From the NCBI GenBank assembly GCA_033064195.1, contig JARBJD010000191.1, positions 80,386-144,385 on the forward strand: a stretch of DNA of 64,000 bases. Direction: 5' to 3'. This document shows, one piece after another, positions 15,558 to 40,326 of this stretch. Under the pieces are notes generated by a model. It had not been told where the DNA came from. It saw only the letters and a list, made by a program, of their open reading frames with translations, and did not search any database. Position numbers and translations under genes: made by a program. The DNA comes from Blattamonas nauphoetae. Taxonomy: Eukaryota; Preaxostyla; Oxymonadida. Every line of letters starts with the position of its first letter. Positions within the stretch are counted from its first letter, which is position 1.

Positions 15558-18500
15558 TTAATTAGGAGGAAGTGTTTGTTGAGCAGTTGAGCTGAGGCTG
15601 GAATAGATTCCGGTCCATCCATCTCCAAACCGCTGTTTTAGCATTTGAACAGCATTTGTGATCTCGGCCCGCAGGTCAGGTGACAGGTACGACCCTTCAT
15701 TTTCAGCTGACGCGTCGGGGATGGCGAGGAAGAGGCCGAGCGTCTCCAGGAGGCCCACAGGAGTGGCACAGAGTGTGGGAAGGAACGATTCACACCACAC
15801 AATCTTCACAAGACCAGCCATCTCCGACAGCGTGATGAGAAAGTTGATTGCGAGCGAGCTGAGACACTGCAAGAAGTGTGAGATCACTCCCAGACCTTCC
15901 AACGCCTGACACACAACAGTGGGGTTCCACCACGCCACACGCGACACCACTCCACCCGCGACGATGGCTGTCTGAATGCCGTCCTCGACATCCTTCTGGT
16001 CCTTCGGGTTGTACACAATCGTCGCGTTGGGCGTGATTGGCGCAGCGAGAATCAGCATCTGCGTCACTCGACCCAAAACAGCTTCAAACTGCTCGTTCAT
16101 CTCTCCGCCCATCACATCGATGATGTGTCCCAGTGCCACGATTGCTGAATGCGACAGGCGGTGTTCGAGTCCAGCGTGTGGAGAGGAGACATTGAACGAT
16201 CCCTGCTTGTGCTGCAAGTACGCTGTGTTGATGTGCGATGGAACAGCATATTGAAGGAGGAGAGGGAAACAAGACGACAGAAGAGTTGTGCCTTCACTCA
16301 CAGCCACTTTCAGTGCATCTGGTGTTCCCTCAGCCAGCTGCCCAACCAGATCAAAGATCCCTCCCAGCGCGGACAGGGACGGCCCCTGCAGTTCTTTGAA
16401 GAGGAAGGCCAAGTAATTCGTGGACGTGATGAGAGTCGGTCGAGCGGAGACTGGAGTGGTTCTGATGCACGAATGGAGTGTTTGGATGGCATATTCCGTC
16501 GTGTTGCATCCAGACGTTCTGATGTCCATTTCCCGCTCGCTTCGGAGAGCATCCGTGACGACGCTCTGATCCTGCGCGTTCAGCTCGACCTGCTGTTGGA
16601 TGGAAGTGTTCTCGTCGTCGATGATGGCGAACGACTTGGCCATGATGCGCGTGAGGTACGGGCTGATCGCGTCGTGGTTGATCTCATCCAGCAACTTCTG
16701 CACAGCCAATAGAACCCACGGAAGCAGAGTGTCGTCTGTGTTTTCGCACTTCTCCATCATCCCCAACACAGACTCCATCAATTTCTGCAGTTTGGTTGTC
16801 TCGTTGAAGAGACCGTGTGTTGCCTCGACGAGTGTTGGGATTGTCTCGAACAGATACCGCAGAGAGTAGCTTGTGTAGCGAGGAACAAGATCCAGCAGCA
16901 CATCCAGCAGCTGGTCGGCGTACGGGATGATTCTGCTGCGAGCCTCTGCGACAATCGTTGTCAGCGACGAGCAACCCTCTTTCTGCACGCGCGTGGAGTG
17001 ATCGTGCAGGGCAGCGTGGAGAGCACTAAGCGTCTTCTCGAAGATGTCGCTGTTGTTGGCTCGAGGGAGAGCCAGCTCGCTCTGATCGGCGTATCCGACG
17101 CGAAGATCACGCTCGTCCAACGGCCCACAGATCCAAATTGAATACGACGAGAGAGTGGAGAGGGACATTGTCCGGACGAGAAAGACGGAGTGCTGGCAGA
17201 AGCTGAGGACCAGTGAGAGGATGGCGGGGAGGTGGGGATGAAGAAAGGCCGTGCAGTGTCTGGCGAGGATTTTCAGAGTCAGGATGCCACTCTCCAGTTC
17301 TTCCCATTGTTCCGGGTTTGTCTTTTGGAAAAGATCGTTAATTGCGGGAAGGAGGCATGTTGTGAGGTGTTCGGGGTAGTTTTCACTCAGTTTGACGAGG
17401 CTTCGGAAGGCGGCTTTTCTGGGCGTGTCCTGCCCGTCTATCTGATCTTCGAGAGTCATATTAGCATCATCATCCGGTTCATACCATCCTTGTGAAGGCC
17501 TGAGTTGTGGTTCAGAAGAAACATTTGCTGAATTAATGATGAAACAGTGGCTCGAATACCATTCTCCAATTCCTCTCGAAAAGGAATCAAATCTTCATCT
17601 CCATACACCAAACGGCGAACCAGAACAGACGCAATACTAGGAAAGATGATGACAAACGGACTAGATACTTTGCAAGCTGTTGTTCAGTGGCAGTGAAGAT
17701 TAGTTCTTTATTATCGAGAACAAGATCCCAAAAATTGAGTCCACTCATCACCAATTGTTCATTTTCATGTCCCATGCAATAAAGAATGTGAGTGATGAGA
17801 TCAGCAACGCGAGGTGCGAGTGGATGATTCATGTCGCGTTTTTGGGCAACATTTGTCAATATTCTTGTTGCAAGTGCTTGAAGCCCAACATCAGACACAG
17901 CAAGGCATGCAAAGACATTCTAAGTGGATGAAAATGAAAAAATAGTGAACATTGAGCAAGTTGTTCATGGACGGATCGAATAGACTCTGGTTGCATTCAA
18001 AGATGGTCTCAAGAGTCACAAGGATCTTTTTGCATGTGGATGGATTGGGGCGTTGGATGAGGCCAATGATTTTTGAGACAAAGCTCACAAGATTTCTGTT
18101 TGAAGATTCAACGAAAAAAAAGACGAACTCTTTCAAACGAATCAGATGGAAGCACTCAGTGTTATCTTCAACAATTCGTTTGAGGCTTTCACAAGCTCCA
18201 TCTGACATAAGTTCATTCTCTGACGCACATTCCGAGAGGAGTTGATCTAAGAAAGGGAACGAGTTTTCAAATCCCACTGACGTGATGAATTTTGTGACTG
18301 CTTGAGAGGTAGAATTCCGAATCAACACATTTTGATCACTGAGACCTGGTAGAATCGAGTAGAATGTTGCTTGTTTGTCGGATTGATCCCAAGTGAGGTT
18401 TTGGATGAATTGTTTGGAAAGTTGACTTCCTGCCAATTGGCGAGTACCGGGATTAACATCCGTGCAGTGAACAAGAATGTGTGCGTAATATCGAGGGAGA

Positions 18501-18760
18501 TCTGGGTTCTGTTGTGAAAGTGCGTTCAGATTCTTCGATGTGATGAGAAGTGATGATTCATAACTCTGAAACGAAAAAGGCAAACATCAAGGACAGAGTT
18601 CACCCGAGATGTTTGTTGTACGGTCGCAGGCTGCAAGACCGACAACAATTGCTGAAGAGTCTCCGCATTCGGTGACCATTGCTGAATGAGAGAGTACGAA
18701 AGGAAAAAAAGAGGAACAGAAAATGAAAACATAAACAAAAGACAAATTCACACTGTCATC
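15558..18760 (-). CDS. Transportin (karyopherin beta-2) type nuclear import receptor
   Basis: Six coding exons on the minus strand, 18755-18760, 18604-18681, 17951-18565, 17669-17919, 17560-17636 and 15558-17527, sum to 2997 nt. That is exactly 999 codons including TAA. The start reads MTQWSPNAETLQQLL, matching the TNPO1 N-terminal helix WKPDEQGLQQILQLL. Later, EELESGILTLKILARHC parallels the TNPO1 segment ESGILVLGAIAEGC, and the C-terminal GDGWTG region parallels GDENWRRF. An acidic stretch (WYEPDDDANMTLEDQ) sits where transportins carry their acidic loop. The predicted structure is all HEAT repeats. Known role: Ran-regulated import of PY-NLS cargo such as RNA-binding proteins. The human protein is about 890 residues; this is 998. 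Three of the five introns are only 31-32 nt. The 6 nt first coding exon is inferred from fit and is the least certain part. Confidence 0.85.
17528..17559 (-). other. 32 nt spliceosomal intron
   Basis: Begins GTATTC and ends TTCAG on the minus strand, within the transportin gene. Removing it joins EELENA to NVSSEPQLRP and restores the frame that otherwise breaks. Confidence 0.85.
17637..17668 (-). other. 32 nt spliceosomal intron
   Basis: Begins GTATCT and ends CCTAG on the minus strand, within the transportin gene. Removal joins EQQLA to NIASVLVRRLVYGDED in the frame expected for the karyopherin. Confidence 0.85.
17920..17950 (-). other. 31 nt spliceosomal intron
   Basis: Begins GTTCAC and ends CTTAG on the minus strand, within the transportin gene. 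It contains a T-rich run and joins PSMNNLLN to NVFACLAVSDVG. Confidence 0.85.
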
Positions 18761-18987
18761 GAGAGAGAAAGAATGTCGAGGTTCTGGAAAAGAGATTACG
18801 GCCAGATCTTGATGTCATCCACAATTGTTGTTAGATTCGAAGAATGAAGACGAATTACAATGCAATGAAGATACTCCATTCAAACAAAGCAAAATATTAG
18901 AAGAATAGACGAGGAGAATTGTGAATGATCCAAAACTAGCAAAGATCGTCGAATGAATAATATATGTCGTGAGGACTTTTATGGCAT

Positions 18988-19556
18988 CTACAATTGGCCG
19001 CTGGCGGTGATCTTGACTTCCTTGATTGGGCGGTCGCCTGGTTGAGTTGGGTTCTTTTCGATGGCATCAAGAACATTCATGCCTTCAACGAGCTCACCGA
19101 AGACCATGTGCTTTCCATCAAGATGAGGGGTCTGCACAAATGTGATGAAGAACTGGGAGCCGTTTGTGTTGGGTCCAGCGTTGGCCATTGACAGCTGTCC
19201 GCGCTTGGTGTGCTTGACTGGGAATCCTTCGTCGGCGAAGCGATCTCCATAGATGGATTTTCCTCCGGTGCCATTACCGCGAGTGAAGTCACCACCCTGA
19301 GCCATGAAACCACGAATAACTCTGTGGAAGGATGAGTTGGCATATCCGAATCCTTTCTCTCCTGTGCAGAGGCAACGGACTGAAAAAAGGGAATTGAATG
19401 GAGTAAGAAAGGGAGACGAAACGGGAAAGCTTGATGAAAGCCGTGGTAGAGCATACAGTTCTCGCAGGTCTTGGGAAGTTTATCCGAGTAGAGTTGGAAG
19501 ACGAGACGGCCGGCTGGTTGGCCACCAATTGAGATATCCATATAAACGCGTGACAT
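18988..19556 (-). CDS. Cyclophilin-type peptidyl-prolyl isomerase
   Basis: Two exons, 19457-19556 and 18988-19379, with a 77 nt intron (GTATGC to TTCAG), encode 163 residues from [12 protein letters not shown] to SGQL. This is the size of single-domain cyclophilin A. The catalytic and binding residues are visible: [14 protein letters not shown] (Arg, Phe and Gln of the active site), [17 protein letters not shown] (Ala-Asn and Phe) and the His of LDGKH. Known role: cis-trans isomerisation of Xaa-Pro bonds and target of cyclosporin A. Oddity: the usual Trp before LDGKH is His (TPHLDGKH). There is no signal peptide, so the protein is probably cytosolic or nuclear. It is divergent from the ATPase gene, with about 270 bp between the two starts. 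Confidence 0.97.
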
Positions 19557-19825
19557 TTCTACAAAATTCAAGAAAAGATAAGATAATTAACAACGATTTG
19601 AAAACCTGTTTGATCTAGATCAGAAATCACCAAACTGCCTCAACTTTGGGTTTTGGGGCGAAAAACTGGTGTTGATTCGAAACAAGATGATCGAATGTGA
19701 ACGATTTAATGGAATTTGTTTAATGACTTTATCATCTGTTTCAGATGATCTGCGCTCTCTGAAGAAGTCGGAGTTGATCAGTCCACAGTTTTGATTTCGT
19801 CCTACAAATCGCGTCATTCGTCCAA

Positions 19826-22800
19826 ATGCTGCGAGTCATCCCAGATCAAAATATCAGATGGCATGCCATCGATGTTGAAGAAGTGATTGAAGTCTGCCAA
19901 ACCAACCCCGAACATGGACTCACAGAAAAGGAAGCGAAGGAGAGGCTCTCCGCCTTCGGTCCAAACTCCCTTCCAGCCGGAAAGAAGACAAATTACTTCC
20001 TGCTGTACCTGAAACAATACCACAATGTCCTCATTTACATGCTCCTCTTCATCATGCTCTTCTGTCTCATTGTTCAAGATTGGGTTTGCACATCTTCATG
20101 ATCAATTCTTCTCTTTCCTCATAGCCGGAGGCAGCTGTAATTGGAGTGGTTCTTATTCTCAACTCCTTGATTGGTTTTTTCCAAGAAGTGCAAGCGATCA
20201 AAGACAGTGAATCACTCAAGAATATGTTGTGCACAACTGCACTTGTTATCCGACAAGGCACAAAGAAATCCATCGACGCAAAAGATGTCGTGGTTGGAGA
20301 TATTCTTGTTATTCAATCTGGTGATAAAATTGCTGCTGATTCCCGAATTATCGACTCCAAAAACTGTCACACGCAAGAAGCTGCCCTGACAGGAGAAACA
20401 ACAGCTAACCCCAAAAGCCCAGATGCTCTTGGTGAAGAAACTGTCCTTGCTGAAAGAAACAACATGGTTTACTCTGGAACATACTGTTCACAAGGCCAAG
20501 CTCTCGGAATCGTCATCGGCACTGGACTCCGAACCGAAATTGGTAAAATCAGTTCAATGGTTTCCAATGTGAAAGAACCACCCACACCTCTGACCCAGCA
20601 AATGAATGTTTTCGGTCGAACAGTCCTTATCGTCGGAATCGTCCTGATCGTCATCACGTTCTGCATCAAGTTTCCTCTCAGCTACAAGACCACTCCCGTG
20701 ACGGAGTGCATTGTTTATGCATGCACTATTGGAATTGCACTTGTGCCAGAAGGATTACCTGCCGTTCAGTCACTGACCCTCGCCATTGGCATGCAACGAA
20801 TGGCGAAGAAGAAGGCCATCATCCGAAGCATGCCCGCCGTCGAAACTCTCGGAGCTGTTTCTGTCATCTGTTCTGACAAGACAGGGACACTTACAACCAA
20901 CCAGATGACTTGCCGTGGCTTTGTCACGAAACAGCACAGATTTGGTGTCAGTGGGAATGGATACGATCCATTTGATGGTGAAGTCTTCACTATGCCCAAA
21001 GACAAGGCTATAGGTCTCCGAAATGAAGACGATGATCCTCGTAACCAGTATACCTTGACAATCGGCCCAACAGATCCACAATTCGGCGAACTTCAGCGTC
21101 TCGTGAACGAGCAAGCTGAGAAACGTCGAAAACATGTTGAAGCAGTCATGGAGCTCAGTGGAATAAACGAGTTTTCTGAAAAAGATACCAATTCAGCCCA
21201 AGTCGAAAGTGAACAAACTCAACAAAACCCATCGTCGGATATTATTCTCGATCACGCAGATGGCCCCCTTGTGAATGCCCTTCTCCGCTGCGGTGTCCTT
21301 TGCAACGACTCTGCCCTTATCAAACAACAGGAGAGCGGCCAATACGACATCCAAGGAGACACCACCGAAGGCTCTATCTTCCCTCTCTGCCTGAAGGCCG
21401 GAGTCAACATGGCCAAACTCATCGGGACCAACAAGAGAGTCGACTCAATCCCCTTCGAGTCGGACTACAAATGGATGGCATCAGCCAACTCCTGCCCCGC
21501 CGACCCTGCCATCCTCCTCGACTTTGTGGAGCCCAAGCCCGTCCCAAAACTCAAAAAGGGACAACAGCCACCTCAGCTTGTGCAGGGCGAGAACGATGGC
21601 GCGAACAACACAATTCTCTTTGTCAAGGGAGCCCCCGAACGTGTGTTCAATCTCTGCCACTACGAAGCTGTGATTGTCGACGAAAATGGAGAGCCCTTCG
21701 ACACTGCCGATCCGAAGAACAGAAACAAGAAGCAGTTTGTGTCCCAACAACCCATCGACATCCAATGGTGGAAGGAGGAGACAGAGAGGCTCGCTGCTGT
21801 CGGTCTGCGCACACTCGGCCTTGCTCAACGTACACTGAAGAGAGAACGCTTCCAGCCGCGTGTTGTGAAAGCTGAAGAACCCGAAGAGAAGGAAGAAACC
21901 AAGCCATCAAAACTGAGCAAGGGAACAACCGACGAAGAAGAGGAAGAATCGGAGAAGGACAACGTGCACGAGCAGGCCGAGTTCGAAGAGGAGAACACTC
22001 CCCACAACCTCCTCCTCGCTCGCAGCAAGTCACCCTCGTCGCACATGTACTCGTCCACCAAACTCCAACAGCTCGAACGCGAGCACGGCACACCCAAAAA
22101 GAAGAAGGGCGCGAAGAAGGACACATCCACCGAGATGGCCGAGCTCCCCGAGAAGGACCGTGTGTACCCTGCCCCCAAGCTCGACTTCGACGAAGTGGAG
22201 GAAGGCGGGTTCACACTCCTTGGTGTTCTTGGCATCTTCGATCCCCCTCGCCCAGAAGCCCACAGAGCGATCAAAAAGTGCAAGCGTGCCCGCATCCGTG
22301 TGGTGATGATCACTGGCGACCATGCCAAGACTGCTGCTGCCATCGGAGCGCTTCTCGGCCTCAACCCGCATCAGGTCAAGACTTCACAGGAGCTGGCGGA
22401 GTTGAACGACGAAGAACTGTCAGTGTCTGTCGACAGCACTCACATCTACGCACGTGCCACCCCTGCCGACAAGATCCGCATTGTCAAAGCACTCCAAGCG
22501 AAGGGATATGTTGTTGCGATGACTGGCGATGGAGTGAACGACTCTCCCGCTCTCAAACAAGCTCACGTCGGAATTGCGATGGGAATCACCGGCACAGAAG
22601 TGGCGAAAGAGGCCAGCAAGATGGTCCTCATGGACGACAACTTCGCAACCATCGTGACAGCTGTGGAGGAAGGCCGGAAAGTGTACACGTCCATCAAGCG
22701 AGCCATCCACTACACACTCGGCACCAACGTCTCACAAGCGCTGTGTCTTCTCATCGCTTCGTGCATTCCCAACACTCCCCCACCCATCACTGCCCTTCAG

Positions 22801-24096
22801 TCGCTCTGGATCAACACGATCACCTCGACTCTTCTTTCCTCCTTCGTCCCCACGCAGAAGGCCACAAAGGGCATCCTCAACCAGCCCCCTCGCAACACCA
22901 AAAAGAACATCCTCACGACCAACTTCTTCATCCGCACGATGTACTGCGGGGTGATCAACGCAACCGCGGCTGTCCTCTACTTCTACCTCACCGCCGACTT
23001 CAACGACGAGGAGGACATCAACCGCCGATCGTCGGTGAGTATGAACATGATCACGCTGATGCAGATCTTCTACATCATCAACCACGTCTACCTGAAGGAG
23101 TCCTCCATCCGCCTCCGCGTCTTCAAGGACATGGGCTGGCTGCAGATCATGGCGTGCCTGATCCTCATCGGGCTGCAGGCTGTGCTCGTCTATGTCCCGC
23201 CGTTCCAATATGTTTTCAAGACGGCGAACATGATGTGGTACGACTGGTTCATCTCGCTCATCCCCGGCGCGGTCACCTTCATCGTGATGGAGATCGACAA
23301 GGCCATCCGCCGCTGCCGCAGACGGCATCTGTCGAAGGTGAAGATGTCTGCCATCGAGGACGGGGAGGACGACTTCTTCATCGACTACAAAGAGGAGGAC
23401 TCGGAGAACGAGGAGAAGAAGAAAGGCGGGCTCCTCCGGCGAAGGAGAAACGGGAAGAAGGAGAAGAAGGCGAAGGACCAGCCGACCATCCCACGCGAAT
23501 CTGAGCTCCGCAACGTCGTTTCATCCAACCCCAGCTTCGCTGCTCCCGCCAGCACAGACAGCCATCCAGCCGTGACTTCAAACCTCTTCTCTCCACCCGA
23601 TGCTGTCCCAGCCCCCACCACAACGCCCATCGGAGACCAGTCAGCCCTCAGCTCGAACAGAGGAACAACCAGCATGATCCCCATCAGAGCAGGCACAGCC
23701 GACAAGGACGTCACAATCTCGTCGCAAAAGAAGCAAGCAAAGAAACAGGACCCCACTGTGTTTTTGGATTCAAATCAGTTCAACGCAAAGACAGAGGCAG
23801 ACGAGCAGAAGAGGAAGGAGGAGGAAGAGAAGGACGTGCAAGCGCAGATCCAAGCTGAGGAAGAACAGAAGGCAGAGAAGAAGAAGGAGGAAGAAGCAAG
23901 AAAGGCTGAAGAGACTGCAAAGAAGGCTGAGGAGGAAGAAAAGGAGGAAGTGAAGGAGGAGGACAAGAAGGAAGAGAGTCAGGACCAGAAGGAGGAAGAA
24001 CCAAAGCATGTGGATGAAGACGAAGGGAAAGAAGAGAAGAAAGAAGAAGAAGAGCCACGTGTTGAAGGCGATAGTGAGAATGTCGATGAGTCATAG
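19826..24096 (+). CDS. P2-type cation-transporting P-type ATPase
   Basis: Exons 19826-20083 and 20125-24096 around a 41 nt intron encode 1409 residues. An N-terminal cation-ATPase domain (WHAIDVEEVIEVC, then HGLTEKEAKERL) precedes the transmembrane core. Actuator TGET is at 175-178, the M4 motif PEGLP at 294-298, the phosphorylation site DKTGTLT begins at Asp337, TGD is at 816 and TGDGVND at 886-892. All catalytic motifs are intact, so the pump should be active. Ion-site motifs differ from SERCA: M4 Glu295 is kept, but M5 has Gln957 where SERCA has Glu, and M6 has Ser987 where SERCA has Asp. Fungal ENA-type (IID) pumps and some bacterial relatives also lack the M6 Asp (from memory), so Na+/K+ export is a candidate and Ca2+ less likely. 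About 250 C-terminal residues are charged, ending in a Lys/Glu-rich coil that may be regulatory. Confidence 0.93.
20084..20124 (+). other. 41 nt intron in the ATPase gene
   Basis: Begins GTTTGC and ends CATAG. It joins CLIVQDW to PEAAVIGVVLILNSL, matching the loop into the second membrane helix of the family. Confidence 0.85.
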
Positions 24097-24342
24097 TTGA
24101 TTGAGGACGCTTGTGAGCGCCAACAAGCGTTCATGAACTCTAAAGCTGATGAACTCATCTTTCTTTTGTGAATGCAAAGCAACCATTCAAACATCCGCGA
24201 TTTGGATACACTCATTGCAGTTTTTTCCGTTGCATATCATTTCTTTGATGAATAGTTAGATCTTTTCTCGAACCTCGACGTTATTACACACCAATAACTT
24301 CTTCCTGTCGCTTCTGTTTTCGTATCAGTTTGTATCTTGTCG

Positions 24343-27300
24343 ATGTATCAACCAGTACCCCACACATCTCATCGCCTTGTTGATTTACTACCATCAGAGA
24401 TCGACAAGCTCGACGGTATCTTCCATCATTCTTCGATCAATGAAATCCTTACATTTCTCATGAAATACTCCAAATCACCCTCAATCACATATCTCTTAAC
24501 ATAGAACACATTCATGATTTTATTCTCTCAAAACGAAATACCGGAAATTTCTTACCCAATGATGCTCTCTCGTTCATCTCAATCGTCCTTGGATCCTCTC
24601 CCACTGTTGCACTCTCTCTCCTCAAAAAACAAACAACGAAAATGGAAACCGCGTGCAGTACTGTTTGGGTTGATGGTGATCATGCATACAAGTGTGAAAC
24701 TTGCCAAGGAGGTCAATCATTTTTCTCTGTCATCTCTCATAGATGCTTCGAGTGCTCTCTGCATCGAGTGCTTTGAACCAGAGAACCATGTCGGCCATGA
24801 ATACAAACTCGTATTCTCATTATCTTCATGTTATCTCAATAGATTGAAGTGAGTGGAGGAATCTGTGATTGTGGACGCCTTGCAGCGTGGGCAGAAGACG
24901 GAATGTGCAAACGTCACCATCGAAACCGCATGAATCGCTATTCACTTGGGAACTTGGATCAATCTGTGAGGACAGCGCTCGTTTCCTTCATTCGACAAAC
25001 CGTCCTCCTAATAACGGATTGCATAAATTGCCAAATATTCCAACTTTCAACACTTTGGGATGTTCATAGACTGATTGATTTCGTGAAGATGGCCCAAAAA
25101 CCAGTTCTCGAATCAATTTCAGAGGTAAATTTTAATGTTCTCATCATTCTTTAAGGATCGATTTTTCCAGGGAAAGGTTGGAGTATTATTGGCCCTTCTC
25201 GATGCCTTATCAGACTGTACATGCTCTTCTGACAATCTTCTGCAATTAATTACTGAAAAAGAGATCGAATGTCAAACTCTATTTTCTGTGCCAATTCCAA
25301 CGGTAACAGCCCCTCCACAACCGGAATTCTACCCAACCTTCACAAATGGATCAGCTTTTCCTTTTCTGTGGTTTTTTGAGTCAGTATGGGACCGTACAGA
25401 TGCTCACAAGAGAGACAACCCAACGGAATCGTTATTTGCTCTCTTTTCCCTCCTTCCAACAGAATATCTTATTAAAGTTCAACAATCTCTCGAAGATTTG
25501 GAAAAAGCCTTTTCCCAGTCACTTCTTCGACGAAAGTCAATCGTCTCAATCCTCCTCCAAAGTCTCCTCCTCTTGGTGGAGAATGGTGGAGAGGTTGTGC
25601 GACGTATAATTACTGAAGAGCTCTTATTAAGCAATCAACAGAGCCGCCCATCACATCATCGCTCTACACTTCCACAACTCACCCGCGAATCAATGCTTAT
25701 CTTAACAAGCACACTTGAGCATCATATGATGCAGCGACAGCCCTTTGAACATCAATTTTCATACTACCATGAAATCATTCCACAAGATCCAAAACTAATT
25801 CAGTCACCAACGTCACAACTGCGATTCTGGTGTCGTTTCATTCGCCTCTTCCCTGTCACCGACTTCACAAATCTATTCACTCAACTGTTCTTCGATGATT
25901 ATTTCCTGTACAATTATGTGTTTGCATATTACGAAACATATAATAATATTTCCTGCTATCCACCACATCATCGCGACCCCCTTTTTTCCCAACATCTCGA
26001 AATTCCAAACCAATCAGACTATGACTCCCTGTCATCTCAAATTACATCATCGTCTCTGCGTGTTGTTGATGCTGATCCCGAATTTGTCCTCAACGTCCTC
26101 ATCCAATCGCTCGTCAACTATCTGGAACAGTTCCAATCGGAGCATGACACATTCCTTGTCCTCCAAATGAGGAAATATCATTTTAACTCCTCACTGCAAG
26201 ATTACCCTGCACAGAAGACCCTTGCTCGACAAGCAACTTTCCTCTCATTCATCACGAATCGACTTCACAAAACTCTGTCGATTCTCCTCCCACCACCGAA
26301 TACCCAATCTTCTCCGGTGGAATCTACTCTCTTGCTTAATCCCACCAAGCGAGATGGGACAGAATTTGTAACATCAATTGACGAAGAGGAAAGATGTGCA
26401 TCGTCCGATCTTCCTCGCTTTTGGTTTATGGTAGTACACATACACTCTGCCCTTTCCGTGCAACGATTCCGAGACACACTTTTCACGGCTCAAAATGGTG
26501 CTCTTCTCCACACTCTCATCAATGTCATGACGTCATTTTCAAATGCTCTATGCTACGTGCGGATCGTCCCTCCATTTCCACCAACCTCGTTTAACGATGT
26601 TTTGGTCAACAAATTATACTATAGTAACGTTGTGCTTGCCACAGTCATCAATACAGCCTTTTTCACAACTCAACCCGAAATTCTTCGTTCAATCTTCCGA
26701 TCTCTCGTTCACCGCGTCGTCAACCAGTACAAAAACACATCGCCCTTCTATTCACTGTCACTCTACGCTCCACAGTCTCTTATTCCGTTTCCAGCGTGCA
26801 CCAGACAGACGACACTCCGCACCTTCACATGGGACGATCTTGGCCCTCATCTCCAACAGACATGGATCGAATCAGGAAGCTCACGCGAGCAATACGAAGA
26901 GGACGGATCAGGGAACATTCTCCTCTCTCTCATCGACAAGAACGTGTTTGGAATCCAAAAAGCAGAGGACATCATCCGACACATCCAGAACGACGCCTCC
27001 ATCAACCCCTTCTTCCACCAGGCTGTCGTCCGCCGCCTCAACTTCGAAGAGCCGCTCTGCCTCCTCAACATCCTCGACAAGGCGTTGGGTGCTTATGCCA
27101 GCACGTACGCGATGGTGCTTCGGGACGAGATACAGATGAACACTGACCACAACTCCTTCTTCAACTCGCTGATGTCGCAGGAGGAAGCACTCTTGGTCTC
27201 CCAACGACCTCTCCACAACCGTTCTGTACTGCTTCGGATCCAGCTTGGGATGTGGAAGAGAAATGACGAGAACTCGGTCAGGCTGACGTATTACGTGTTT

Positions 27301-30300
27301 GGCAACTACAACATGATTCGAAACCAGCTGGCGGAAGTGTTCTGCCTCCAAACTTGTGTCTGTGCTGCTGGGTGGAAGGCATTCCTCCCTTTCTTCCTTT
27401 CGCAGATGATGCTGGACTTCTTCTTCCTCCCTCCGTGGTTCTGGAAGAAGAACGCTCAACTCTGCAGTCTGGACAGCGACGGACATCCACTTCCAAACGG
27501 TCAAGATGCTCCATTCCCTCTCCCTTCCAGAGTCGATCGAATCGGCGACAACTGGGACCAGAGAGACGATAACCAGCTCTTCTACGTGTCCCGCTGTCTC
27601 GATCTCCTCTGCCACATCATCGTCAACCGCACTTACCACCTCGGCGACTCAACTGCTCTCCAAAACGAACGAGAGGGCATCCTCCCCAAACCGGACGACT
27701 GGCACAGGGAGTCGACAGACCGAATTGTGTCGCTTCCTCTCACCGACGACGCCCTCCGCTCGATCATCGCTCTGATCCTCGCCAACAAAGACTACCCTCG
27801 CAGCGAGTTCCAGCGCATCATGCCGATGAGTGTTCTGACACACGACCACTTCGAAGCCATCATCTCCGAACTGACCGTCCAGAAGACTGAAAATCAGCAG
27901 ACTGTGTTTGGCTTGACAAGCAAAGCGTGGGACTACGTCGACGTCCACGCTCTTCAGCTCCTCTACCACCATCGCCGACAGACCCCGCAGCGGATTGAAG
28001 CCGAACTCACCCTCCGCGAACTGGATTTGTACGATCCTCGCAAAGATGGCACGGCTGAGTTCACTCAATGGCTCCTCTCCGATGCGACGTGTCCTGATGG
28101 AGGGCGTCCTCCTCCTGTCAACAACTCGGTCTCTCCGTCCCATCCAGGGATGCCGCTTCCACTTCCCTCTTCTCCTTTCTACGTCCGCCTCCTCGATGTC
28201 TGCACAACACGGACAGCACTGGGGATGGTCTGGACCTCTCTCCACCTCCTCACCCACCGGCAGGTTGAGTTCGACACCCTCCATCCAATCGATACCGAAG
28301 GGTTCTCGTCCAGAGCAGAGAAGTTCTCGTTTGAAACAGGCCAAGTTCCGTCCAACATTCAATCGATCGCTTACCACAAACACTCTCTCGAAGGACTTCA
28401 CTCAGTCATCCGGCTTCTTGACTTCACACTCTGCTGTTCCCCGCAATGGGTGATCGAGAAGGGGAGGAAGCTCACACAGCCAGTCCTCGAGGACGACTCG
28501 GAATATCCTCTCGCTCTTCCGTGCCCACCAAACGCCAGTTTCATCGAGGCTCTCTTCTTCGAGACCGATTGTAGCTGCATCTCCAAAGATGCATCGAAGC
28601 ACAACACGTCCCAATCCATTGCATCGTTGCTGTTCACTCTCTATTCCATGTCTGCCGATGTCTCTCTTCCTCAAGTGACGAAGGTTCTCGTCAGCCGACT
28701 CCTCATCCGCCTCCGCTTCCTCGTCAACACTTTCTATTCATCCGATCCTCGACACAACACGTGGCTGGTGCAGATTGGAGTGACTGAGGAGGAAGAAGTC
28801 GAACCTCCTTCGACAGATGACGAGGCGGAAAAGAAGCGGAAGATCAAAGAGCGTCAAGAAGCCATGACAGCACTGATCAAACAACAGCAGTCAGCATTCC
28901 TCTCCAGCTATTCCTTCGACACCGCCTCAGACGATGAGAAAAGCGAATCAGACGAGCATAAGGACGCACCAAATCCCGAACACATCCTGCGCGAATCAAC
29001 AGGCCAAACGTGTCTCCTCTGTCACAGCCAAATCCTGAAAGGGGAGCCAGCAGGTTTGGTTGCGAGCATCGATCACGAAGCTTTTCTGCAGTCTCTCCAC
29101 ACATCCGCAGTTCAGAAGGAGCGGATGAAATGGGTGCAGAGATCGCTGAAGGAGAAGCTGAGTGCGAAACAACCAAGCAGCACCGTCAAGTTTCAGAAGT
29201 GGTGGGACATCGAAGAGGAGACTTGCGACGAAAACGATCTTGTCGATCCACAACTTCTCACTCCCACGCCCTCTCCAAACGTCGTCCAACAATCTCCGCC
29301 TGCCTCTCCAACGCCGATCACCCCGTCGCAAAGCCCTCAACTCAACGCGCCCAACTTGCAGATGCGCAGAGTGCCTTTCGAGACGGCTCTTCGGTTGAAC
29401 ATCCAACCTCGCACCGACGAGTTCTTTTTTGGATACTCGCCCGACAAACGCGACAAACCCACTCGACACTCCAACATCTCTCTTCCAATCGAAAAGAAGT
29501 ATGACACGACACTCAGCGAGGAATTGTTGTCGTCGATTGATTGGAGAACTGCTCCCCTCAGCCAGGGCGTGGCAGGGCTTCTCTTCAACCCAACCGAAGG
29601 CAACCTCGTCAAGTCACGGCCGATGAAGGACACCCTCCGACGAGTCAAAGTTGAGGAAGAACGGCCCAGGCCAAGCGACGCCGAAGAGAACATGCTCTCC
29701 TGGCTCGACGATGAGATCCAAGTGGAGACATCTGACATCAAGCAGTGGGGTGATGTTCCGTCCAACCACCGCTTCTTCTCCGACATCCCCTTCATGCCCC
29801 ATCCCATCGTGTCTGCGCCCGCCTTCCCATACTCTTCAGAAGCTCCCTCGGATGCCACAACACTCACATCTGTCAAGAAGAACGTGTACGTTCAGTCATG
29901 TGGACATGCCATGCACACCACATGCTATGTGGAGATGCTTCGACAGCAGAGCAACGAATCACCGCAGTTGGACCATGCCAACTTGGAGTACACATGTCCC
30001 GGCTGTCGGAAGCGAGGAAACACGCTCATTCCGCTCGTCGGATGTGAAATGTGTGGCGATTGCGAGGAGGGCGTGTGGAATCTTGTCCAGGTCGGCGAAG
30101 ACGAGGAGGATAGTCCAGAAGTGATGGTGCTGAACAAAAAACGCCTGAATTCCATATTTTCACGCAGCACAATCTTGACTGTTCCAACATCGACTCCACA
30201 CTCCACCCTTGTCATCCCTCCCTCCCATTTCTCAACTGACGTCCAGCCAACAGCCTCCCTCCTCTTCACAGTCACAACTGAACTCGACGTCTTCACCACA

Positions 30301-32520
30301 CAACTTCTTCGCGTGGTGGGCATCCTGAACGCATCCCCTGTCCAATCCCACAGAAATGAAAAGCCGATCGAGGTCACTCTCAGGAACTCTCCAGAACAGG
30401 ACAAAGCAGAACCCGTTCCAGTCTCGCTGTTCACACGAGCCAACCCTCCCACAGGATCAATCTCTGCAGTTCTTCTTGATCCTTTCGAATTTCACATCCG
30501 CCCCATGCGTCCAACCGGAATGCTGTTGAACTTTCAGCTCAATCTGGAACAGCTCTCGCAGGAAGCTGAGCTGACCCAGAACCAGTATTCCTCGTTTGTG
30601 CTGGGCCATCTGACACATCAAGTCCTCTCCAAGAAAGACAAATATGAACTCGCCCGTTTTCCAGAAAATGGAGCCAGCGTGCTGTCAAAGATACCGTCGC
30701 AGTCGCTTCTCGTTGCCATCGAAACGCTCCAGTTACTCTTCACAGGAATGGACCAGACAACACCCGTCTCTCTCGACACTAAACGGACCCACATCATCAC
30801 AGTCTCCGAACTCATCTGTCAATTCGTTCCCTTCGACTTCGGGACAGCCTTTCCATCGCCCATCCAAAACGCGTTGGTTGACACACTCGCTCGAATCGAG
30901 TGGGGGCTCAGACCGTTTCCATTCGCTGGCGTCGATGTTTTCGAGGAACTGGCGTATTCCGCACAAGATGATCCCGAGTTGGCCAAGCATCCGACACTGT
31001 CGTTCTATCTTAAACACCATTCACTCCCACTCGCGACCAAACGATTCCAGTTGAACAAAGGACAGAATCATACTCTGTCTGCCCTGTTCAGATGTGTGAT
31101 GATGAACAATCTCATCACATTCGCGACTGACAAACCGAAAGCGATCAACTTCACATCGCAATTGTCGTACGAACAGCTTCGCCTGAAAGGGATGGGATTG
31201 GCCATGATGATCCTCTCATTTCTTGCCTCCCAGCCCGAAGACGACGAAGGAACAGTCACCCCATTCCCAGACATCCTCGATTCCATCACCGAAAAGGAGA
31301 ACAGCGAGCAGATCATGATAGCCGGCCAGCTTCTTTCGGATACAGTCGGATCCGACCCGACACAACTTTTTGTCTCACTTCTTAGCGTTGCTTCTCTCAT
31401 TCAAACCGAAGAGGGACTTTCAATCGCTCCAATCACCCCGTCGTTCTTTGCCCTTGTCTTCGAGCTTGTCCTTTCAACACTTCCCATCACTTTCTATTCG
31501 CAGTGTCAGGCAGACTCACTCACCACGTTTGCCTTATCTCAACCTCATTCCTGGTTCCACCCGACGAACTCTCTCTTCCAAGCAGATGCATTCACTCGCC
31601 GTGCCTTTCTTCTCTTCTCTTCTCTCTTCTCTGCCGATCCACCAGAAAAGCTGGCAGAGTTCTCGTACACACTCTTCATTCCACTCTGTCCGCCCTCTCC
31701 GTCTTCAACCATCCCGCAATACCTCACCATCCACCAACGGCAGTATCTCCAAGAACTCCAAAAGTTTCCAGTGGAGCACATTCCTTCACTGGATTCACTT
31801 GTGACACTTATCCGGTCATTTTGTGCGAGTGATCCTGAGATGTCGTCCATCATGCCCTCCAATCTCACTTACATGCACCATCGCGACTCGGAAGACTCCC
31901 CTGCTCCTGCCGTCCCCGTGTCCATCCTCCAACCGTCATTCCTCTCTCTCCCGTTCAACTTCCACAAACTGTTCATCCTCTCCCGCCACATCCACTGCCC
32001 CACGTGTCTCCAGCACACCTCAGTCTCCCTCCGCCACTACTTCTCTGTCTGTCTTGTGTGTGGCCGGTCAGTCTGTGCCTGTCAGCGTTGTTGCACACGC
32101 TCCTGTCTTGAAGTCCGCCTTACAACGCCACGTGAGCCACTCGCTCAACAAATTCCCGTCCTTCGAGGGCGTCTCTTGGCTGAGGAAGTGGAACACGGTG
32201 TGATGTGCGGAGGGGCTGTCCTTCCGTTCATGGCCACGATCCCGTTCCAAATCTCCCTTTCAGCCAAGTTCAGGCCCTCTCAGCTGTATGTGCTGCATTC
32301 TCCTCTTTTCAACCTTTTCTATTGATCTCCTTGCTCATTATATCCCCTTCTTCCTCTTTTAGGCCTCCCCTCTATCTCGATGAGTTCGGCGAGTCGGACA
32401 TCGGCAATCAACGAGGAAAACCGCTCCATCTCTCCCTTCTCCAGTATCCGTTTTTGTCTCTTTTACCCCCTCAGCTATTCCCAAATATTGGAATATATGT
32501 GTGATCGTCGTCTGGGTTGA
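24343..32520 (+). CDS. UBR1-type E3 ubiquitin ligase (UBR box, RING, UAIN)
   Basis: Seven exons, 24343-24415, 24505-24711, 24743-24810, 24843-25124, 25171-32285, 32363-32443 and 32475-32520, total 7872 nt and encode 2623 residues. The UBR box spans about 75-142 with all zinc ligands: Cys75, Cys88/91, Cys100/103, His109/112, Cys124/126, then CKRH. A RING is assembled from Cys1491/1494 and, 292 residues later, CGHAMHTTC (1787-1795) and CPGC (1819-1822). The C-terminal UAIN region shows FHKLF, a Cys-rich segment, CGGAVL, then PLYLDEFGESDIGNQRGKPL. Known role: binds destabilising N-terminal residues and ubiquitinates the protein for proteasomal decay. Oddity: the usual CDCGD of the UBR box is CDCGR (Arg128). 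Introns of 89, 31, 32, 46, 77 and 31 nt cluster at the two ends. The first exon is the weakest assignment. Confidence 0.92.
24712..24742 (+). other. 31 nt intron inside the UBR box
   Basis: Begins GTCAAT and ends CATAG. It joins KCETCQG to DASSALCIEC, so two zinc-ligand pairs are brought together only after splicing. Confidence 0.88.
24811..24842 (+). other. 32 nt intron inside the UBR box
   Basis: Begins GTATTC and ends AATAG. It joins HVGHEYKL to IEVSGGICDCG. Confidence 0.88.
32444..32474 (+). other. 31 nt intron near the UBR ligase C-terminus
   Basis: Begins GTATCC and ends CTCAG. Without removal the frame runs on as Pro/Leu-rich sequence. With removal the end reads HLSLLHYSQILEYMCDRR, matching the family pattern of a Tyr and Leu-rich helix after RRGNPL. 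Confidence 0.8.
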
Positions 32521-35441: not shown

Positions 35442-38400
35442 TTAGGTGGAGCCTGATGTCGGCGAGTGTGTTTGTTCGATGGACTGAAAGTTCTTGGGAA
35501 GGATGAGTGGGAACGGCTTCTCCATCGGGTTGATAGTGATGGACATCTGGCCTTGTTTCGGACGAGTGTCTGAGTGTGGTGTCTGTGCGACTGGCGAGTA
35601 GAGCATCTGGTTCTGATAGCCGTATCTGTTCTGCGACTGGTCCATCATCTGCGAGCTCTCTTTCAGCTTCCCGCGTGGGACGAATGGCTGAACGGTGTGG
35701 ACACTTTGGCTGAAAGCTTGTGTCGCCTGCTGCGACACCGACAGACCCGAGTTCATCTGCCCATCAAACCGCGTCTGATACGGGCTCATCTGCTGCGTGT
35801 GCGGGCTCTGCTGGTATTCCGCGTATTGGTAGTACCCGAACTGCTGACTGTCGCCTTGTGAGAACTGGTTGGACTGAGGGTTGGGGGAGTGGCTGGAGAG
35901 GGAGTGACTGGCCGGGGGGTTGACCACAGGTGAGAACTGCTGTGGGGGGCACATCGGCGTCTGCATCGGAGTCTGGTGGAAGGACGCGGGTTGTGGAGAG
36001 TAGAACTGGCCGCTCGGATAAGGTTGGATGGCGGCTGGCTGCATCTGGAACATCTGCTGCTGCATTGTGAACATCGGCTGTGGGATCTGCATCTGCTGCG
36101 AGATGAACTGGTTGGCCATTCTTCCCTGCTGCTGATTCATCATCATCTGGTCGCTGAACCCTCCCTGCACCATCGGGATCATCATCCGCTGGTTATGTGC
36201 CATCTGTATGTCTGTCTCCATGCTGTGTGGAATTTGGACTGTTGCGTTTGGCGGGAACTGTTGTACTTGGGAGTCGTTGTATTGCTGAGCCTGCATCTGA
36301 TTTTGGACTCGATTTGTGCTCTGATCAATCGGAGGGTTCTGTCGAGGTTGTTGCTGTGTCGGCTGTCGTTGAGGCTCCTGCTGTCTCTGCTGCTGTGTGC
36401 GTTCCTGCTGTCTCTGCTGTTGTCTTTGCTGTTCCTGCAGCTGTCTGGCCTCCTTTTCCTGCTCCATCCTCCGCATTCTCTCCTCCTCCTCCAGCTGTGC
36501 TTGGTGCGCGTAGTATTGATCCTGATCCGACAAGTCCTCGTCAGACTGATAATCGCGGAACGAATCCATGTCGAACAGCGCTTCCTCGAAAATCCCGTCA
36601 TCATCGCTCCACTCGTCTCTTCTCGAGTCGTAGTCCAGCGGGGTCGAGTCATCAGCATCAGACAGCGAGTGGTGGTGATCGGAATAGGAATACGGCTGAT
36701 TCGACGATTGCTGAGGACGCGACTGTTGCTTCGCCTGCTGTGCGTGGTGCTGCTGCTTCTTTGGTGACTCCGTCTGGTTCGGTTCGTGCCGTGGTTGGTG
36801 GAGCATGTTCTGTCGAAGTCTCTGCAGTTGTTGCTCTTGCCTGCTTTGTGCTTCTGGTTCCTGGCGTCGGTGTTGTTGCTTTGAGCGGGGTGGCTGAGAT
36901 TGTGTGTTGTGGGGAGTGTATTGTCGACGCTGTTCCTGCGGCTGGTATGATTGCTGAGATTGCTGGTGTGATGGTTGGTGTGATGATTGTTGTTGTGTCG
37001 GTTGTTGCTGTTGGTGTGGTGATTGCTGCTGGTTCGGTTGGCTTTGATATTGCTGTCCTCGTCGTTCGTCCTGTTGGGCAGTCGGTCGGGATTGTTCTTG
37101 TGTGGCAGCAATTGGAATCTGATGTATTGTCTGTGGAGCAACAGGACGATGGTCGCTCTGGCTTGCGTGCTGCACTTCTTGACCTCTCCTTCGTTGTGTC
37201 TGCTGCCTGGACCGTTCATGGTCAGCATGCGAGTGTGTTCGCTGATCCACTCTGGACACGTGGTGTTCGTCTGCCTGTCCACCACGAGATGCCTGCCGGT
37301 TGTTGTATCTCGGCTCAGACTGATTCTGCATCTGCCTTGCATGCTGATTCTGCTGTTGTTGGTTCTGCAGCTGTTGGTTGTGTGGTTTGGTGTTGGGATG
37401 TGGTGGTGTTTGGAGGATGTCTGCTTTGTACGGTTGGACAACAACTTCCGACGGCTTGTTCGGGTTGAGATGGATTGTGATCTGCTGATTGGGATAGGTG
37501 ACGAGTGGTTGTGAGAGTGGGGAGTGGTTGAGTGAATGCGGAGAGGACTGTGAAGTGAGGGAGGACGTGGAGTCCAACTTGAGTTGTGGTGATTGTTGGT
37601 GAGCCGATTGTTGGGACTGAACGTGTTGTTGGGGGGATTGAACAGACTGGCGGGGAGGATGGATGAGTTGTTGTGGGGATTGGACCAGCTGTTGAGGAAT
37701 GTTCTGTCGTTGTTGAACTGAAGTCGTGTTTTGATGGTGGAATTGCTGGAACTGTTGAGTTTGCTGCAATTGGGACGTAGAGTTGTACCCTGGACGTGGA
37801 TTTTGGGGAATTATTTGAGCATATTCAATGTTCTGCCTCTGATTGCTTGATGGATCCAGCTCAATGCTTGGCATTGAATTCGGGCTTGTTTGAACTGGAT
37901 GGAAGTTCAAACTGTAGTATTGATCATATTGTTGGTATTTTTGTTCTGTTGGAAGGTTATCTCTTCGTTGTTCCCTCTCGTTCTGCTTTTTCTTCCCAGT
38001 TGGAGTTTGGTGTTCGATTGATGGTTTAATGCTTGAGATTCGTTCTTCATCAGATCCAAATAATATGTCATCATCGCTGAGATCATCTGTGAGTTGGTGT
38101 GAATCATTGCTCACCTGATTTTGGTGTTGCTCAGGAGATTGGTTCGGTTGAGAAGGAATTGAAGGATCGACGAGAGGAAGGTTTGAATTTCCTTGAGACA
38201 GTGCATGTTGGGGATTACTTTGAGCATGCGGTTGAGTGTGTTGAGATAACCGTGGATTATACTCATAAACTTGTTTCCTGTTGTCTTGGGGTTCTTTCTG
38301 TGCTCTGGGCATATGCTCTTCTCGATTTACAGTAACTGGTGAAATTTTATCCCCAACAGATGATACTTCTCTTGTTTGTTTTGATTTTCTTTGTTCATCA

Positions 38401-40326
38401 TCTCGTTTTCCATCTTTGGTTGGTGTCCAAGAATAGTGAGGCATAGGTTTTGCCTGTGGTGAAGACTGCGGTTGACGCACCGACTCAGCTTGAGTAGGGC
38501 TACTCTCTGCCGGTGGGTTAGTTTTCTGTTCAGATGACGACTGTGGCTGAGCTGGAGTTGACGGTTGAGTGAGCTGAGCCTGGTCATTTGCCAGAGCTGC
38601 TTTCCGTTCTTTCGCTTTTTGTCTGTTTTTTTCGTTCTTTTTCTTCTTCCGCTGACGTTCAAATTCCTCAGCGGTGGCGGGTGTGGGAGGCTCATTTGAA
38701 GATTGTTGATGAGAGCGAGATGCTGAAGAGAATTTAATAGAAGGAGATGTTTCAGAACTGTGCTTGTCGGGGGAGGATTGAAGTGAGCGGTTATCAGTTT
38801 CGGGAGTTTTGTGCCCAGTCTGGCGAGGTTGAGCAACAGCTGTGATGGAGAGACCAGCAGGATCTGTCTGAAAGCGTTGCGGGTCTTGGATCGGTTCTAC
38901 AACAAGTCCGGGCAAAATACCGAATTGAATCTGGTTTTTAAGTTCCGGTACCTGTTGTGGGAGAGAGATCGAGATTGAAGGCTCTCCTGTGTATCCTCCT
39001 GGAAGCTCATTCAATTGAATTCGCATGGAGCGAGAAGGTTCATATTGCTGTTTGGCAGGTGACATTGTGTGGCCTTTCGATGGAGGTCGATGTTGGAGGG
39101 GAGTGGGATTATCGAGGAGGTGGTCCCGAGGCGGTTGTTCTTGGCCCCCAGACGGTTTTGGAGGAGTAATGTCTTGTGAATGGGATTGATCTGTTCTTGC
39201 TGCTCGGGCGTTTCGACTGTGTTCAGAGTTTTGATGTTTCACTGGCTGTGTTTGAGGAGGTGTGGTGGTTGGCTTGGAAGATGGTGAAGGAGACCATGAG
39301 CTCTGAATTTTCGGCACATATGAAGTTGGCTTGACTGTGACTGTTCCGTTGTGCACTGAGACAAATGAAGGGATCGGAAACGGGCACGTTTGGTGTTTTC
39401 TCTGCTGAATGTTTTCCGTTGCCAATCGCATGACATCAGTCACTGTATTCTCTGAAGGATTTTGAGGATTTGTTTGACTTGCTTTTTCAGTGAGGAAGGC
39501 TCGAAGTTTGAGACCTTTCATCTTTTCGATGAGTTCGGGATCGATGGTGATTGAATCTTCCTGGTTGGAATGCACAAATGTACAGTTCGCGATTGGACAA
39601 GTTCTTCCGGCAAGAAAATGCTTACAATATCGATTAGTACCGTATGATGCACTGAGATAACCGATTATGAGGTGTAAGTGTGATTAGAGAAAAAAACGAC
39701 AAACTTGATGATGCTCCCAGCATAAGGAACTTTATTCAGAGCTTCAATTGCCTTTTTCGCGGATTCATCATCTGCGTAACTAATGTATGCACATTTCAAG
39801 TGATTCCGATTAACATTTGGTGGAACAGCGACTTCTATGTAAGTAACCTGGCCAAATCTTCCAAAGAAATGGTCCGAACGGAGGATCTGATAAAATGAGA
39901 AGGGGATCATGGAAAGAATTTGAGATGAAACCTCATCAGTGGCAATCTTTGGTGGGAGGCCGGTGACGTAGACGAGGTTCCTCTGAAGGACTCTCTTCTT
40001 CGAAAGAGCTTCAACATCTCTGTCATCCAATTTGTCTACCTTTTTCGCCGGTTGTTTCTGCTTAGGTGCTCTAATCGTGCAAGAAGAATCAACAGAAATG
40101 AGATGAAATACTCCGGCTTTTTGTGGTAGACATGGTTGTCCTCATCATATGGTTGACGACAGTATGGGCAATTTGGATGATCAGATTTAGAAATTGTATT
40201 GTAGCAGAATGCACAGAGTTGAAAGTGGCAGGGGCACGGGAAGAATGTTTGGTCCATTTCATCCATTTCTCCACTACAAATTGGACATTCTGTTGGTCGT
40301 TCCTTCGGGAATTTCATTCGTTTCAT
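35442..40326 (-). CDS. NOT4/CNOT4 E3 ligase of the CCR4-NOT complex
   Basis: Four exons, 40112-40326, 39932-40070, 39705-39886 and 35442-39651, sum to 4746 nt, or 1581 residues. A C4C4 RING has Cys at 14, 17, 31, 33, 38, 41, 53 and 56, the spacing I recall for human CNOT4. Next comes an RRM (about 98-180; NLVYVTGLPPKIATDE, then FFGRFGQVTYIEV, then CAYISYADDESAKKAIEALN) and a CCCH zinc finger at Cys188, Cys197, Cys202, His206 (C-x8-C-x4-C-x3-H). This RING-RRM-CCCH order is diagnostic. Known role: ubiquitin ligase in co-translational quality control and mRNA decay. Unusual is the ~1370-residue Gln/Pro/Ser/His-rich tail with long Gln runs. Human CNOT4 is about 575 residues. The 45 nt intron in the RRM is stop-free and a multiple of three. 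The gene is divergent from the ABC transporter. Confidence 0.95.
39887..39931 (-). other. 45 nt stop-free intron in the NOT4 RRM
   Basis: Begins GTTTCATCTC and ends TTATCAG on the minus strand. Its 45 nt length and lack of stops mean retention would add 15 residues inside the RRM, between KIATDE and ILRSDHFFG. Confidence 0.8.

What the first reader, a model, noticed from the sequence alone, without database searches (positions are those of the whole stretch)
17528..32474. A class of 31-33 nt spliceosomal introns
Seven introns are 31-33 nt: 17528-17559, 17637-17668, 17920-17950, 24712-24742, 24811-24842, 32444-32474 and, outside this span, 51493-51525. Each restores a conserved reading frame in a recognisable protein. 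All are GT-AG and lie in unrelated genes. The tight length suggests a fixed minimum rather than chance. Other introns here range from 35 to 143 nt. This is below the usual animal or plant minimum and near the sizes known from ciliates.
Basis: partly seen in the sequence, partly recalled or inferred. Interest (0 to 1): 0.75.

Follow-up and report, generated by a model that had tools for sequence, protein, structure and literature searches.

The report
Very short introns with fixed geometry
In a stretch of DNA from an unidentified eukaryote, seven introns are only 31-33 bases long and each carries a likely branch point 10-11 bases from its end, so they look like a set compressed to the minimum size that this organism's splicing machinery accepts.

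Summary
All seven segments are at the stated coordinates and are GT-AG on the coding strand; removing them joins reading frames of three genes (transportin, UBR1/PRT6-type E3 ligase, histidine phosphatase). Five sit where alignments to solved homologues run through the junction; 51493 removes in-frame stops; 32444 is weakly supported. I curated 26 introns in seven genes: seven of 31-33 nt, none of 34-37, the rest 38-132. Length alone is not decisive (P 0.0001-0.15 by smooth model).

The stronger signal is internal: 7 of 7 short introns have T[CT]A[CT] with its A 10-11 nt from the 3' end (0 of 20,000 shuffles), against 1 of 19 longer introns; longer introns are enriched for TNAY 21-30 nt from the end (16 of 19, expected 9.4). 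Two branch-to-acceptor spacings would explain both the 31-33 nt size and the empty 34-37 interval. An eighth case (25125-25155) is possible. The motif was picked from these same seven introns.

There is no transcript evidence and the organism is unidentified. Ultra-short intron classes are known in Trichomonas, Blastocystis and ciliates: a new member of a known kind, possibly with a new geometry.

The parts
17528..17559 (-). 32-nt intron of the transportin gene (GTATTC...TTCAG); putative branch A at 17537
   Evidence: (inside the TNPO1 alignment, 2-residue gap just behind the junction)
17637..17668 (-). 32-nt intron of the transportin gene (GTATCT...CCTAG); putative branch A at 17647
17920..17950 (-). 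31-nt intron of the transportin gene (GTTCAC...CTTAG); putative branch A at 17929
24712..24742 (+). 31-nt intron inside the UBR box (GTCAAT...CATAG); putative branch A at 24732
   Evidence: (ungapped UBR-box alignment); missed by the gene finder at all four penalties
24811..24842 (+). 32-nt intron inside the UBR box (GTATTC...AATAG); putative branch A at 24833
25125..25155 (+). possible eighth short intron (31 nt, GTAAAT...TTAAG; TCAT with A at -10); the alternative acceptor at 25170 makes it 46 nt
   Evidence: called as 31 nt at all four penalties by a model whose splice-site and intron terms were learned from introns of 38 nt or more, the 46-nt version of this one among them, with no branch-point term; geometry; not resolved by homology
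32444..32474 (+). 31-nt intron near the 3' end of the UBR gene (GTATCC...CTCAG); putative branch A at 32465
   Evidence: weakest case: 68.4 against 68.0 bits for PRT6_C; called by the gene finder only at the mildest penalty
51493..51525 (-). 33-nt intron of the histidine phosphatase gene (GTTTGA...TGTAG); putative branch A at 51503
   Evidence: removes in-frame stops; the exon behind it lies outside the Pfam match
15558..18759 (-). transportin-1-like importin gene, 5 introns (72, 38, 31, 32, 32 nt)
18988..19556 (-). cyclophilin gene, one 77-nt intron
19826..24096 (+). P-type cation ATPase gene, one 41-nt intron
24343..32520 (+). UBR1/PRT6-type E3 ligase gene, 6 introns (89, 31, 32, 46 or 31, 77, 31 nt)
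35442..40326 (-). CNOT4-like RING + RRM gene, 3 introns (41, 45, 53 nt)
45188..47244 (+). MFS transporter gene (MFSD1-like by recall), 8 introns of 53-132 nt as curated; donor choice of introns 1 and 5 uncertain
51268..52474 (-). histidine phosphatase (branch 2) gene, 2 introns (52, 33 nt); 5' end uncertain

Best explanation
The seven segments are U2-type spliceosomal introns at the minimum size that this organism's spliceosome accepts. The size is set by two spacings: 5' splice site to branch A about 21-23 nt, and branch A to the 3' splice site 10-11 nt. Longer introns keep a similar or longer 5' spacing but use a branch point mostly 21-30 nt from the acceptor, so the next shortest introns start near 38 nt. 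Shown from sequence: coordinates, GT-AG ends, frames, homology at five junctions, and the positional enrichment of T[CT]A[CT]. Inferred: that the A is the branch point, that splicing happens, and that the two spacings form two classes rather than the ends of a continuum.
For: Coordinates and ends. Frames and open spliced models. UBR-box and TNPO1 alignments. T 48% and A 15% in short-intron interiors against T 22.5% and A 27% in exons. T[CT]A[CT] with A at -10/-11 in 7 of 7 short introns; no 2-nt window reached 7 of 7 in 20,000 shuffles, plain A did in 0.3%. TNAY: 0 of 20,000. 1 of 19 longer introns has T[CT]A[CT] there. Longer introns: TNAY at -21 to -30 in 16 of 19, expected 9.4, P 0.0034; T[CT]A[CT] in 13 of 19, expected 7.4, P 0.0086, and at -11 to -15 in 0 of 19, expected 4.2.
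Against: No transcript data. Motif and position were seen in these same seven introns before testing; the shuffles correct for position, not for motif choice. The longer YTNAY is at -10/-11 in only 3 of 7 (P 0.29). Five of seven short introns hold further T[CT]A[CT] sites elsewhere. A whole-window scan for the short-class pattern gives 13 hits against 10.9 expected, and its composition filter misses 51493. Length clustering is not significant under a gamma model with a hard minimum. The weaker donor of the short set is only a trend: +5 G in 1 of 7 against 11 of 19, P 0.08. The gene finder missed 24712, one of the two best supported by homology, at all four penalties and 32444 at three; its coding model was trained on the curated spliced genes; inside the tandem array decoys gave up to 7 segments of 31-33 nt. 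32444 is poorly supported. The 45-nt intron also has TCAT at -10.
Confidence: 0.62

Rival explanations
1. The seven are ordinary U2 introns at the lower edge of one continuous length distribution with a hard minimum near 31 nt; the shared branch distance merely follows from being short, since little room is left.
For: A gamma model with a hard minimum gives P 0.15 for seven at 31-33 nt. Introns of 38, 41, 41, 45 and 46 nt exist. With 31-33 nt available a branch point must sit fairly close to the acceptor.
Against: A continuum would let the A fall over several positions; it can be placed at -10 or -11, intron position 21-23, in 7 of 7, although five of the seven have further sites. No intron of 34-37 nt among 26. 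Longer introns have no T[CT]A[CT] at -11 to -15 (0 of 19).
Confidence: 0.28
2. The short introns are relics of U12-type (minor) introns, which also have a branch point close to the acceptor and a GTATCC donor (both recalled).
For: 32444 begins GTATCCGTT, one mismatch from GTATCCTTT; four of seven begin GTAT.
Against: The other six donors have 3-6 mismatches (shuffle means 4.1-4.7), and no short intron comes closer than 3 mismatches to TTCCTTRAY. The putative branch motif has a pyrimidine where the U12 consensus has a purine.
Confidence: 0.03
3. They are not introns: consensus indels of the assembly, retained coding insertions, or DNA-level eliminated sequences as in ciliates.
For: No RNA test was possible. 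Six of the seven hold no in-frame stop of their own when retained.
Against: All seven are GT-AG in coding orientation with strong T-over-A skew, 0.52, as in the longer introns, 0.41: RNA-strand signals, not expected of DNA-level elements. None of the seven begins with TA, as TA-bounded eliminated sequences would (that rule recalled). Retention breaks a UBR box and a transportin at aligned positions.
Confidence: 0.04

Closest known systems
Trichomonas vaginalis type B introns (beside type A)
   Same: A uniformly short class beside a longer variable class in one genome; lower 5' splice-site conservation in the short class; branch A close to the 3' splice site (passages read in PMC12316389, and PMC6260720).
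   Different: There 23-26 nt, branch motif TCTAAC at 7-8 nt, and the longer class has the same 7-nt distance; here 31-33 nt, T[CT]A[CT] at 10-11 nt, and the longer introns seem to use 21-30 nt. T. vaginalis has 63 introns, one per gene; this window alone has 26 curated introns in seven genes.
Blastocystis short introns
   Same: Mode 30 nt, GT-AG, several per gene (passages read in PMC5608401). PMC12817076 (passages) gives a median of 19 nt instead.
   Different: Here 0 of 26 are 30 nt, 19 of 26 exceed 33 nt, all seven modelled genes end in an encoded stop, and four reading frames run 4.1-7.2 kb without interruption.
Ultra-short introns of ciliates (Paramecium; Oxytricha and Stylonychia groups under 43 nt)
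   Same: Separate ultra-short size groups (passages read in PMC5014332 and PMC12862383).
   Different: [quoted passage not shown] here the donor trend is the opposite. Paramecium medians are 24-25 nt.
Introns of oxymonads (Streblomastix strix, Monocercomonoides exilis)
   Same: S. strix: A, T, G at +3 to +5 of the donor, pyrimidine before the final AG, T-rich 3' region (PMC1501061 passages); here +4 is T in 16 of 19 and +5 is G in 11 of 19 longer introns.
   Different: The 21 S. strix introns are 46-229 nt. M. exilis introns average 119-124 nt (PMC8767320 passages; no length distribution seen).

Membership tests
U2-type spliceosomal intron | GT-AG ends in coding-strand orientation | tested here: met
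   7 of 7; the 26 curated introns were chosen to be GT-AG
U2-type spliceosomal intron | removal restores a conserved reading frame | tested here: met
   5 of 7 by alignment; 51493 by removing in-frame stops; 32444 inconclusive
U2-type spliceosomal intron | branch-point motif (core UNAY; consensus recalled) | tested here: inconclusive
   TNAY at -10/-11 in 7 of 7; the longer YTNAY in only 3 of 7; branch not mapped
U2-type spliceosomal intron | spliced transcripts or lariats | not testable with these tools
   no RNA reads; no genome held for this window
U12-type intron | donor RTATCCTTT (recalled) | tested here: not met
   1 of 7 within one mismatch, six with 3-6 mismatches
U12-type intron | branch site TTCCTTRAY (recalled) | tested here: not met
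   best match 3 or 4 mismatches in 7 of 7 short introns
T. vaginalis type B intron | length 23-26 nt | tested here: not met
   31-33 nt
T. vaginalis type B intron | TCTAAC branch site 7-8 nt from the 3' splice site | tested here: not met
   T[CT]A[CT] at 10-11 nt
T. vaginalis type B intron | weaker 5' splice site than the longer class | tested here: inconclusive
   +5 G in 1 of 7 against 11 of 19, P 0.08; P 0.036 if 25125 is counted as short
Blastocystis introns | mode of 30 nt | tested here: not met
   0 of 26 at 30 nt
Ciliate internal eliminated sequences | TA at both boundaries (recalled) | tested here: not met
   0 of 7 begin with TA; all begin GT

The most novel reading that the evidence does not exclude
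One genome uses two discrete intron architectures handled by one major spliceosome: a compressed form with the branch A 10-11 nt from the acceptor and 21-23 nt from the donor, with a relaxed donor, and an ordinary form with the branch A 21-30 nt from the acceptor and a GTWTG-like donor. The empty interval at 34-37 nt is the gap between the two, so intron length is read out from two fixed branch spacings and not from length as such.
Probability: 0.35. Interest if true: 0.7.

Novelty: new member of a known kind. Interest (0 to 1): 0.5.

Why it matters
Human spliceosomes are reported to need about 50 nt between donor and branch site; PMC6692369 (passages read) relates this to a 17-nt U6/donor helix and a 14-nt U2/branch helix that both occupy the intron. 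A 21-23 nt spacing cannot hold both at human length, so these introns would imply a remodelled early complex. If two branch-to-acceptor spacings coexist in one genome, they give natural pairs of substrates for asking what sets the lower size limit of an intron. On the practical side, a gene predictor that forbids introns under about 35 nt would break genes such as this transportin and UBR ligase.

Tried and rejected
De novo gene finding with no splice-site model was useless as a test: it skipped repeats and weak coding stretches with arbitrary dinucleotide pairs, and decoys gave as many 'introns' (GT-AC gave twelve of 31 nt at one setting). A second version with splice-site and intron-composition terms from introns of 38 nt or more recovered 20, 19, 19 and 17 of the 26 curated introns at four penalties. 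It still invents introns in the tandem array at 55379-64000 (20-24 per GT-AG run) and fuses the cyclophilin and transportin genes. In one search two decoys showed many 31-33 nt segments (GT-AC seven, GT-TG six); one search places 7 of 7 and 5 of 6 of these in the array. Its coding model was trained on the curated genes, so it is not independent of the curation.

Rejected or left open: the 35-nt candidate at 42213-42247 (5 T in 35, in a linker); a 20-nt version of the 38-nt transportin intron (adds six residues where the query is already longer than TNPO1); 42 nt at 40942-40983 in the ABC gene (T-rich, plausible, not tested by homology); a 51-nt GT-AG stretch at 52098-52148 in the phosphatase frame, not counted. 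For MFS intron 5 a stronger donor exists (46278, 112 nt) and for intron 1 another (45310, 174 nt): one search uses 112 for intron 5, the other counts use 91 and 132. One search was also run with 25125 as 31 nt (P 0.0035, 0.0084, below 0.0001 and 0.14 for eight, in the order exponential, shifted lognormal, lognormal, gamma) and with the 42-nt ABC candidate added (P 0.0175, 0.020, 0.0003 and 0.17 for seven). Introns that are 3n and stop-free escape frame-based curation, so the list is biased against them.

Organism: no whole genome is held; Rfam and tRNA scans found nothing; two scans of viral contigs found no relatives; genome contigs was not scanned. I considered the oxymonad Blattamonas nauphoetae from GC content (47.9% here; 44.96% in PMC10703272) and donor type, but have no test of it. 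Paper searches. No intron lengths of B. nauphoetae were seen in PMC10703272 (term search; section 6 read). Read as passages only: PMC1501061, PMC8767320, PMC12817076, PMC12316389, PMC5014332, PMC6679479, PMC5608401, PMC6692369, PMC6260720, PMC12862383. Everything else was seen as search listings.
Full report
What was checked. They lie in three genes: a transportin-like importin (three, minus strand), a UBR1/PRT6-type ubiquitin ligase (three, plus strand) and a histidine phosphatase (one, minus strand).

Evidence that they are removed. Three-frame translations show the frame change or stop at each segment. Six of the seven hold no in-frame stop of their own; retention shifts the frame and the first stop comes 39-79 nt after the donor, none being seen in the stretch examined for 17528. 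With the segments removed, the seven genes that I modelled read open to an encoded stop. Across 24712-24742 and 24811-24842 the protein is a UBR box: it matches zf-UBR positions 2-69 of 69 and aligns without a gap to solved PRT6 boxes (7wuk, 7xwd). The three transportin junctions lie inside one alignment (residues 3-613 of a 625-residue query) to human transportin-1, E 1.8e-26, with a 2-residue gap just behind the 17528 junction. For 51493-51525 retention meets a stop 3 nt in, but the exon behind it lies outside the Pfam match. For 32444-32474 only 45 coding bases follow and the Pfam score hardly changes, 68.4 against 68.0 bits, so this one rests on its intron-like sequence and on my reading of the last residues.

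The wider set. By reading frames and homology I curated 26 introns in seven genes: 31, 31, 31, 32, 32, 32, 33, 38, 41, 41, 45, 46, 52, 53, 53, 55, 55, 62, 72, 77, 77, 89, 91, 95, 107 and 132 nt. Ends are best supported where homologues align across them (UBR box, transportin, CNOT4) or where the family profile is covered (cyclophilin); some MFS and ATPase ends are choices between alternatives. Frame-compatible GT-AG pairs near each junction, the reported pair counted, number 3 to 13 for eleven of the twelve introns of 46 nt or less; for 32444 the script returned none, not even the reported pair, because of the nearby stop.

Is 31-33 nt more than chance? By length alone the answer depends on the null. 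Seven or more at 31-33 nt has P 0.0141 (exponential from 30.5), 0.0158 (lognormal from 28), 0.0001 (lognormal from 0) and 0.15 (gamma from 30.5); for any 3-nt bin the values are 0.06, 0.09, 0.008 and 0.20 (n = 26). A pile-up at a hard minimum and a separate class cannot be told apart this way.

Internal geometry. All seven short introns carry T[CT]A[CT] with its A 10 or 11 nt from the intron end, that is at intron position 21-23; five of them also hold such a site elsewhere. In 20,000 shuffles no 2-nt window from -6 to -26 held this motif in all seven; for plain A the figure is 0.3%; for TNAY again 0 of 20,000, while for the longer YTNAY only three of seven match and P is 0.29. The motif was noticed in the same seven introns. 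Of the 19 longer introns one (45 nt) has T[CT]A[CT] at -10/-11. They have none at -11 to -15 (expected 4.2); at -21 to -30 they have it in 13 (expected 7.4, P 0.0086) and TNAY in 16 (expected 9.4, P 0.0034). Each of the five introns of 38-46 nt has, among others, a TNAY site at intron position 17-25. Donors differ in trend: +5 is G in 11 of 19 longer and 1 of 7 short introns (P 0.08).

A less supervised check and a possible eighth member. A gene finder with flat length prior, no branch-point term, and splice-site and composition terms learned from the 19 longer introns recovered 6 of 7 short introns at its mildest penalty and 5 of 7 at three stricter ones. It missed 24712 at all four and 32444 at three. 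Its coding model was trained on the curated genes, so the check is not independent. It changed the 46-nt UBR intron to 31 nt, 25125-25155, although the 46-nt form was in its training set. That version has TCAT with A at -10; the chance of T[CT]A[CT] at -10/-11 in shuffles of it is 0.14.

Interpretation. The most economical reading is that a donor-to-branch spacing near 21-23 nt and a branch-to-acceptor spacing of 10-11 nt make the smallest intron that this spliceosome handles, and that longer introns use a more distant branch point. This explains both the tight 31-33 nt size and the lack of 34-37 nt. It remains inference: no branch point is mapped and no transcript was seen. For scale, PMC6692369 (passages) puts the human requirement near 50 nt between donor and branch site.

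Comparison with known systems. Trichomonas vaginalis has a uniformly short class (type B, about 25 nt, degenerate donor) beside a longer one (type A), in passages of PMC12316389 and PMC6260720; its branch A lies 7 nt from the acceptor in type A and 7-8 nt in type B. Blastocystis introns have mode 30 nt in PMC5608401 (passages) and a median of 19 nt in PMC12817076 (passages). Paramecium and some spirotrich ciliates have ultra-short groups (PMC5014332 and PMC12862383 passages). The U12 alternative fails: six of seven donors and all seven branch regions do not match. The organism is unidentified; longer introns have GTWTG-like donors as the 21 introns of the oxymonad Streblomastix strix do (PMC1501061 passages), which is a hint and no more.

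Verdict. The introns are real by sequence evidence, one of them weakly so; the size class is plausible; and the branch-point geometry is the part worth following up with RNA.

Noticed in passing
55379-64000: Tandem array of a 62-63 nt unit, about 140 copies at 92-95% match, running to the window end. A minus-strand frame reaching into it (54244-56646) matches coiled-coil-type Pfam families such as Striatin, E 2.3e-11, perhaps through composition only; it confuses gene finders.
   Followed up: partly
40942-40983: A T-rich 42-nt GT-AG stretch inside the ABC transporter reading frame, 3n and open, called by the gene finder: a possible in-frame intron.
   Followed up: no
52098-52148: A 51-nt GT-AG stretch, open in frame, inside the histidine phosphatase gene: another possible in-frame intron.
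   Followed up: no
39887-39931: A 45-nt intron of the CNOT4-like gene is 3n with no in-frame stop found, so retention would be silent to frame-based checks; the alignment to CNOT4 fits its removal.
   Followed up: yes
7645-15316, minus strand: A 2327-residue reading frame with no Pfam match and several possible introns at its 5' end, one of 37 nt; function unknown.
   Followed up: no
the seven modelled genes: None of the seven most 5' introns (72, 77, 41, 89, 41, 132, 52 nt) is of the 31-33 nt kind; all seven short introns are later ones.
   Followed up: no
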